Shown here in pieces: positions 4,122-5,573 of a stretch of 37,086 nt of DNA (position 1 is its first letter; every line of letters begins with the position of its first letter). The notes below the pieces were generated by a model. It saw nothing but the letters and a program-made list of their open reading frames with translations, ran no database searches and was not told the origin of the DNA. The position numbers were made by a program, and so were the translations under genes. The stretch is from Deltaproteobacteria bacterium (GTDB taxonomy: Bacteria > Myxococcota_A > Polyangia > Haliangiales > Haliangiaceae): positions 1 to 37,086 of the forward strand of contig JAFAOG010000357.1 in the NCBI GenBank assembly GCA_019237945.1. Reading direction: 5' to 3'.

Positions 4122-5573
4122 ATGCCCGCGATCGTGTCTCTCCTTCGCGTCATGACGCTCCGCGACGCCGATGCCATCGTCCTCGAACCGGGCCGAATTC
4201 CCCAGCTGCGCCGCCGCGGCAACGTCGAGGCGCTCGCGATGCCCGCCCTCGATCCGCAGCTGCTCGCCGACTTCGCGCGCCCGCTGCTCGACGGCCAATC
4301 ACTCTCGTCGGGCCCGGTGATGGTGACGTTCCGCCACGAAGACGCGACGTATCCGGTCACCGTCGAAGAGACCGCCTCCGGGTTGCGGATCGTCGTGCGC
4401 AAGCCATCGCTCAAGAAGCCGGAGAAGAAAGAATTACCGCCAAGGAGCCAAGGGGCAGAGAGCCCGCCACCAGAACCAATTTCTTCTCGACCCTCGCTCG
4501 GCGATCTCTCTGCCTCTCGGCGTCTTGGCGGTAACTCTGGGTCGCTCGCCGCGCTGCTCGGCGACGCGGTGCGGGTGGCGGCCGGGCGCGGGGCCAGCGA
4601 TCTGTTCGTGTCGACCGGGCGCGGCGCGAGCATCAAGCGCGATGGGCGGCTGGAGGCGATCGATGTGGCGGTCGATGACGAGCAGCTTGCGGCGTGTGTT
4701 GGGGAGCTCGCGCGCGGCGGCAGCGTGGACCTATCGATGGAGTGCGGCGGCGTGCGGCTGCGCGTCAACGCGTTCGTGCACATGGGCGGCTGCGCGGTGG
4801 CGGCGCGCCTGATCAAGGAGAGCGTGCCGGGCCTCGGCGAGCTCGGGCTGCCCGACGAGATCGCGTCGCTCGTCGAGCTGCGCGACGGGCTGGTCGTCGT
4901 GTGCGGGCCGACCGGGTCGGGGAAGTCGACGACGTTGGCGGCGCTCGTCGATCTGCTCGATCAGCGGCGCGCCGCGCACGTGATCACGCTCGAGGATCCG
5001 ATCGAGTACCGGTTCGCTGCGCGGCAGTCGCTGATCCATCAGCGCGAGCTCGGCACGCACGTGGCGTCGTTCGCGGATGGGCTGCGGGCGGCGCTGCGCG
5101 AGGCTCCGGACGTCATCCTGCTCGGCGAGCTGCGCGATCGCGAGACGATCAGCGCGGCGCTGACGGCGGCCGAGACCGGCCACCTCGTGCTCGCGACGCT
5201 GCACGCAGCGAGCGCGGTCGGCGCGATCGATCGGATCGTCGATGCGTTCCCGGAGTCGCAGGCCCGCCAGACGCGGAGTCAGCTCGCCGGTTGCCTGCGC
5301 GCGATCGTGACGCAGTACCTGCTGCCGAAGCGCAACGGCGGTCGCGCGCTCGCCGTCGAGCTGGTGCCCGTGACGGCGGCTGTCGCGAACATCGTCCGCA
5401 AGGGCGAGCTGCAGACGCTGTCGACGGCGATCCAGAGCGGGCGCGACGCCGGCATGATCCCGCTCGAGCGATCGCTGGCGCGGCTCGAGGGCGTGGTCGC
5501 GCCGCAGGTGATCCGGCGCGTCGCCGCCGATCACGATTTGCTGGGATCGCTCACAGGTCGCGCGGCGCGGTGA
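4122..5573 (+). CDS. PilT/GspE-like secretion-type ATPase (twitching motility family)
   Basis: VVCGPTGSGKSTTLAALVDLL (Walker A), HVITLEDPIEYRF, REAPDVILLGELRDRETISAALTAAETGHLVLATLHA (Walker B/His box). Start assigned to ATG at 4122 (MPAIVSLLRVMTLRDADAIVLEPG). Confidence 0.9.
   Translation: MPAIVSLLRVMTLRDADAIVLEPGRIPQLRRRGNVEALAMPALDPQLLADFARPLLDGQSLSSGPVMVTFRHEDATYPVTVEETASGLRIVVRKPSLKKPEKKELPPRSQGAESPPPEPISSRPSLGDLSASRRLGGNSGSLAALLGDAVRVAAGRGASDLFVSTGRGASIKRDGRLEAIDVAVDDEQLAACVGELARGGSVDLSMECGGVRLRVNAFVHMGGCAVAARLIKESVPGLGELGLPDEIASLVELRDGLVVVCGPTGSGKSTTLAALVDLLDQRRAAHVITLEDPIEYRFAARQSLIHQRELGTHVASFADGLRAALREAPDVILLGELRDRETISAALTAAETGHLVLATLHAASAVGAIDRIVDAFPESQARQTRSQLAGCLRAIVTQYLLPKRNGGRALAVELVPVTAAVANIVRKGELQTLSTAIQSGRDAGMIPLERSLARLEGVVAPQVIRRVAADHDLLGSLTGRAAR
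4431..4537. repeat. imperfect palindromic repeat element (about 107 bp, 32-bp arms) embedded in-frame in the PilT-like CDS
   Basis: Left arm 4431-4462 gaattaccgccaaggagccaaggggcagagag; reverse complement of right arm 4506-4537 is gagttaccgccaagacgccgagaggcagagag; 27/32 identical, 43-bp loop. Confidence 0.85.

What the first reader, a model, noticed from the sequence alone, without database searches (positions are those of the whole stretch)
4431..4537. Palindromic repeat element inserted in-frame inside a PilT-like ATPase gene
Two 32-bp arms (4431-4462 and 4506-4537) are inverted copies with 27/32 identity around a 43-bp loop, far beyond chance. The core (ttaccgccaagg.gcc.aggggcagagag ... ctctctgcctctcggcgtcttggcggtaa) resembles a type of dispersed CCGCCAAG-type intergenic repeat that I recall from various bacterial genomes. 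Here it lies inside a CDS, keeps the frame, and adds about 35 residues (ELPPRSQGAESPPPEPISSRPSLGDLSASRRLGGN) in an interdomain linker, similar in concept to Rickettsia palindromic elements that insert into protein genes.
Basis: partly seen in the sequence, partly recalled or inferred. Interest (0 to 1): 0.8.

Follow-up and report, generated by a model that had tools for sequence, protein, structure and literature searches.

The report
Palindromic repeat forming pilus-motor linker
A short palindromic DNA repeat, present in about 25 copies and normally found just after genes in this Kofleriaceae-like bacterium, also sits in frame inside a pilus-motor (PilT-like) gene, where it encodes a disordered linker; related species carry different palindromic repeats in that same linker.

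Summary
Arms 4431-4462 and 4506-4537 match 27/32, the reading frame stays open, and the RNA hairpin scores z = -5.3. The element (4430-4538) belongs to a genome-specific family of about 25 copies whose ends read AGAATTACCGCCAAG...CTTGGCGGTAATTCT: 48 end motifs in this genome, 0-3 in each of 36 other genomes of the order. Most copies are 103-115 bp and lie just 3' of genes, about half between convergent genes. The window copy is the only one wholly inside a CDS. In the PilT-like ATPase it encodes a disordered linker between two structured segments. It does not lengthen the protein: it occupies the place of an A/P-rich linker of similar length. Of 23 homologues in the surrounding clade, 14 carry palindrome-like linkers of at least four kinds; 0 of 97 outside do. 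One kind (RQERQERQ...LGVLGVLGG) is what an intergenic repeat family of another genome in the genus would encode. Best reading: MITE/REP-like non-autonomous repeats tolerated in a permissive linker, akin to Rickettsia palindromic elements and intragenic REPs. I found no target-site duplication, transposase partner, U-tract terminator or covariation, so mobility and any RNA function are inferred.

The parts
4122..5573 (+). CDS of a PilT/PilU-type ATPase, 483 aa, that holds the element in frame
   Evidence: ORF list; Pfam T2SSE E=2.8e-43; PDB PilT chains match from residue 149/150 on, E=1.1e-73
4430..4538 (+). Palindromic repeat element, copy of the AGAATTACCGCCAAG family
   Evidence: End motifs at 4430-4444 (+) and 4524-4538 (-, one mismatch); alignment of 18 copies
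4431..4462 (+). Left arm of the palindrome
   Evidence: 27/32 identity to the reverse complement of 4506-4537
4506..4537 (+). Right arm of the palindrome
   Evidence: 27/32 identity; paired with the left arm in the predicted RNA fold
4122..4403 (+). Codes for the extra N-terminal domain (about 94 residues) before the linker
   Evidence: AlphaFold2 model: blocks of pLDDT 80-94 up to residue 90 of the 479-aa form, which starts 4 residues later than the 483-aa form
4413..4532 (+). Codes for the disordered linker, nearly all of it element sequence
   Evidence: pLDDT under 50 at residues 94-133 of the 479-aa form, i.e. 98-137 of the 483-aa form
4536..5570 (+). Codes for the PilT core (N-terminal core domain and ATPase, Walker A GPTGSGKST)

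Best explanation
The segment is one copy of a genome-specific family of non-autonomous, MITE/REP-like palindromic repeats. About 25 copies exist, most 103-115 bp, with 15-bp ends AGAATTACCGCCAAG, normally just 3' of genes. One copy became fixed in frame in the linker of a PilT-like ATPase. It survived because the linker is disordered and tolerant of sequence and length, and because many copies are free of stops in at least one frame. The element now supplies the linker in place of the A/P-rich sequence seen in relatives. Shown: the family, the copy positions, the open frame, the predicted disorder, a like segment in one close homologue, and other palindrome kinds in the same linker of relatives (these last from protein sequence). 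Inferred: that copies arose by transposition, that the linker was occupied more than once, and that the effect on the ATPase is near neutral.
For: Copies: 38 BLAST matches at about 20 places, 51 end motifs against 1 control. Lineage-specific: 48 ends here, 0-3 in each of 36 other genomes of the order. Context of 25 copies: 12 between convergent genes, 8 between co-directional genes, gap to a gene end mostly 9-29 nt, 1 wholly in a CDS. Linker predicted disordered and variable among homologues. Closest homologue P0002 has ELPPRS...RRLGGN in the same place. 14 of 23 clade rows carry palindrome-like linkers, 0 of 97 outside. G008 intergenic repeats translate as RQERQERQ and LGVLGVLGG, the motifs of nine homologous linkers. 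Copies are often stop-free in frames +0 and +2.
Against: No target-site duplication (p = 0.51). No autonomous copy with these ends was seen, and the 20 Y1_Tnp ORFs lie on other contigs than the copies. No empty site at DNA level for the window copy: the nearest relatives with DNA are 67% identical or less and have unrelated linkers. The kinds in homologues are read from protein, not DNA.
Confidence: 0.75

Rival explanations
1. One ancestral palindrome entered the linker once in the ancestor of the 23-row clade; the different kinds seen today arose by replacement or conversion from each genome's own repeat family, with losses, rather than by separate insertions.
For: All carriers fall in one clade; both ends of the segment lie at about the same places in the linker.
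Against: Left arms are read in different frames and differ in sequence (ELPPRS, RQERQ, NYRQDAK). Kinds are interleaved with rows lacking a palindrome (P0006, P0007, P0009, P0013); 4 presence changes at least.
Confidence: 0.25
2. The hairpin itself is kept because it acts in the mRNA, for example slowing translation between two domains, so palindromes are selected in this linker.
For: Strong fold (z = -5.3); different palindromes recur in this linker.
Against: RNAalifold on 18 copies finds no pair with changes on both sides, though this concerns mainly intergenic copies. Several close relatives have no recognised palindrome. The window hairpin is within the range of the other copies.
Confidence: 0.08
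3. The intergenic copies are bidirectional transcription terminators, and the coding copy is a misplaced one. This concerns the family's function and is compatible with the best explanation.
For: 12 of 25 copies lie between convergent genes, often 9-29 nt from a gene end.
Against: No U-tract terminator in two of three loci scanned; one weak match, near chance, in the third. The bias also fits survival in harmless places.
Confidence: 0.15
4. A chance palindrome in native linker sequence, no mobile or repeated element.
For: Linkers of this protein are low in complexity and variable.
Against: About 20 further places with similar DNA and 51 end motifs against 1 control.
Confidence: 0.01

Closest known systems
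Rickettsia palindromic elements (RPE)
   Same: 105-146 bp repeats with terminal inverted repeats and long predicted stem-loops, found between genes and fused in frame into protein genes (PMC2229807; PMC10969869).
   Different: Other sequence and host. RPEs entered many unrelated genes; here 1 of 25 copies is wholly inside a CDS, and the recurrence is in one linker.
REPs (GTAG- and CGTC-tagged palindromes), including intragenic REPs
   Same: Mostly downstream of genes, between convergent or co-directional ORFs; some within ORFs; different REPs at about the same site in recB of two Xanthomonas species (PMC3733652).
   Different: REPs are 20-40 bp with a GTAG or CGTC tag at one end; these elements are mostly 103-115 bp, with matching ends and no such tag seen in the aligned ends.
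Bacterial MITEs (Correia/NEMIS, ERIC, RUP, YPAL)
   Same: About 100-200 bp, terminal inverted repeats, long stem-loops, no transposase gene, some with frames fused to genes (PMC2229807).
   Different: No target-site duplication detected and no parent transposon found; Correia, ERIC, RUP and YPAL are listed with a duplication in that review.

Membership tests
MITE (miniature inverted-repeat transposable element) | Short element with terminal inverted repeats and no transposase gene | tested here: met
   15-bp ends inverted to each other, most copies 103-115 bp
MITE (miniature inverted-repeat transposable element) | Target-site duplication | tested here: not met
   Shared flank words no longer than with shuffled partners, p = 0.51; exact ends are uncertain by a few bases
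MITE (miniature inverted-repeat transposable element) | Parent transposon with the same ends | tested here: not met
   All end pairs found lie within 400 bp of each other; the assembly is a draft
REP with RAYT | GTAG or CGTC tag at one end of a 20-40 bp palindrome | tested here: not met
   Aligned ends read AGAATTACC...GGTAATTCT; definition from PMC3733652
REP with RAYT | RAYT gene flanked by the repeats | tested here: not met
   20 Y1_Tnp ORFs, none on a contig that holds a copy
Rickettsia palindromic element (as a way of working) | In-frame presence inside a conserved protein gene | tested here: met
   Window copy in the PilT-like CDS
Rickettsia palindromic element (as a family) | Sequence relationship to RPE families | not tested
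   No RPE sequence was compared; membership is not claimed
Intrinsic terminator | Hairpin followed by a U-tract | tested here: not met
   Three loci scanned: none in two, one weak match near chance in the third

The most novel reading that the evidence does not exclude
The PilT-like linker is a true hot spot: different palindromic repeat families enter it preferentially, or are kept there, because a hairpin at the boundary between two N-terminal domains helps co-translational folding or regulation.
Probability: 0.1. Interest if true: 0.75.

Novelty: new variant of a known kind. Interest (0 to 1): 0.45.

Why it matters
In-frame palindromic repeats are known from Rickettsia and from intragenic REPs. 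This case, in a large GC-rich Kofleriaceae-like genome, offers a clade in which several palindrome kinds appear in one linker of one orthologous protein beside relatives without them. That is a natural series for asking how repeats become protein sequence and whether disordered linkers act as sinks for mobile repeats.

Tried and rejected
Rfam: only sub-threshold matches, best MIR1437 at 27 bits against a cut-off of 168. Plasmid collection: one short weak match. Searches with the linker alone found only the query protein itself, for the window and for P0003. Core motifs as strings in the paper library: none. Back-translation test for inverted repeats in linkers: too little power; only P0001 exceeded z = 4, and P0002, P0008 and P0003 lay near z = 3 among some A/P-rich rows, so the kinds in homologues rest on motif reading and on the G008 repeats. 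Target-site duplication: none. Covariation: none. The G008 orthologue is only a fragment at a contig end without its linker. Sequence similarity between the two N-terminal segments: none detected.

Full report
What is there. The window is contig C435 of an 8.13-Mb draft genome in 632 contigs; named homologues of the host protein are from Kofleriaceae and Myxococcales. The arms at 4431-4462 and 4506-4537 agree at 27 of 32 positions, and none of 249 random stretches of the window exceeded 22. The transcript folds at -63.9 kcal/mol, z = -5.3.

A repeat family. BLAST of 4425-4545 in the own genome gives 38 matches at about 20 places. The end motif AATTACCGCCAAG, with one mismatch allowed, occurs 25 and 26 times on the two strands against 1 for the control. 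Aligned copies share the ends AGAATTACCGCCAAG...CTTGGCGGTAATTCT and vary in the middle. Most are 103-115 bp. A few have similar ends around other interiors: 396, 300, 337 and 66 bp, and 268 bp at C173. The 15-base end, with one mismatch allowed, occurs 48 times here and 0-3 times in each of 36 other genomes of the order, so among the genomes held the family is peculiar to this one.

Where copies lie. Genes were called by codon-position GC around 25 copies. Twelve copies lie between convergent genes, eight between co-directional genes and one between divergent genes; two at contig ends have one called neighbour; one overlaps the 3' end of a large ORF (C173). The window copy alone is wholly inside a CDS. 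Gaps to a gene end are mostly 9-29 nt. The caller is crude, so single assignments may be wrong, but the 3' bias is plain and agrees with what is reported for REPs (PMC3733652). The window itself has one convergent pair among 24 neighbouring pairs, a small sample but far from twelve in 25.

The host gene. The CDS at 4122-5573 encodes a PilT/PilU-type ATPase. The AlphaFold2 model (mean pLDDT 74.5, shallow alignment) has an ordered N-terminal domain up to about residue 90, a stretch under pLDDT 50 at 94-133, and the PilT core. The N-terminal domain shows the same order of helices and strands as the segment after the linker (H-E-E-E-H-E-E-E), which suggests a duplicated domain; sequence comparison finds no similarity, so this is inference from the model. 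The disordered stretch is the element. It did not lengthen the protein: palindrome-bearing linkers have a median of 50 aa, clade relatives without a recognised palindrome 41, other homologues 51. In the closest carriers little but the palindrome lies between KKPEK and LAALL, while relatives have A/P-rich sequence there. Whether insertion and loss of the old linker were one event is unknown.

The same linker in relatives. Of 120 homologues, 14 have linkers that read like palindromes of this general type, and all fall in one 23-row clade (SH-aLRT 99). P0002, 89% identical, has the window's kind (ELPPRS...RRLGGN). Nine have RQERQ-type linkers, most ending in LGG. P0005 and P0016 look by back-translation like CCGCAAAG- and CCGCAGAG-unit versions. 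P0019 (ENYRQDAK...SRRLGGN) fits the window family's ends read in another left frame. P0020 is uncertain and not counted. Intergenic repeats of G008, a genome of the same genus, translate as RQERQERQ and LGVLGVLGG, which ties these protein motifs to a DNA repeat family. The tree needs 8 changes of kind and 4 of presence with P0020 left out. Separate occupations look likelier than one insertion with later replacement, but without DNA of the carriers I cannot exclude the latter. Homologues in the window's genus for which DNA is held have plain A/P-rich linkers where the linker could be read; at 67% identity or less they are too distant to serve as empty sites.

Mechanism. The simplest account is a non-autonomous palindromic repeat that spreads, survives mainly 3' of genes, and occasionally survives in a disordered linker when the frame stays open; many copies are stop-free in at least one frame. 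Mobility is inferred: there is no detectable target-site duplication, no autonomous copy was seen, and none of the 20 Y1_Tnp ORFs shares a contig with a copy. An RNA role is not supported by covariation, nor a terminator role by U-tracts in three loci scanned.

Compared with what is known. It works like Rickettsia palindromic elements and intragenic REPs (PMC2229807, PMC10969869, PMC3733652), but lacks the REP tags and a detectable duplication, and no named family was matched here. Different REPs at about the same site in recB of two Xanthomonas species is the nearest precedent for the recurrence. I therefore rate it a new variant of a known kind.

Noticed in passing
L116-L130, L133-L135 (G008, same genus): A separate family of CCGCCAAGNNCGCCAAG palindromes, mostly outside called genes, many near contig ends, as if repeats had broken the assembly.
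   Followed up: partly
L059:1506-1901, L060:1512-1811, L062:1572-1908, L061:1579-1644: Elements of 66-396 bp with the same 15-bp ends but other interiors, sharing internal pieces such as GCCAAGAACGCCAAG and CTCGAGCACCCG with each other.
   Followed up: partly
L024:1529-1793: Two near-identical copies in tandem with about 50 bp between them, apparently a segmental duplication.
   Followed up: no
L022:1335-1602: Element ends 268 bp apart; the 3' end of a large HEAT-repeat ORF runs through one arm into a K/P/A-rich tail and stops between the ends. Only two weak relatives in the genus.
   Followed up: partly
L125:1344-1822 (G008 C305): Tandem array of right-arm repeats with a period of about 106 bp.
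   Followed up: no
L123:1503-1679: Interior holds a CCTCTAAGTCTCTGCGGTTAATC stretch that looks like part of another palindromic repeat family (CCGCAGAG units).
   Followed up: no
G000, 20 contigs listed: Twenty Y1_Tnp (IS200/RAYT-like) ORFs; whether they have repeats of their own was not examined.
   Followed up: no
window 7436-9130, minus strand: ORF with a long QQG and NGSNGQ low-complexity tract.
   Followed up: no
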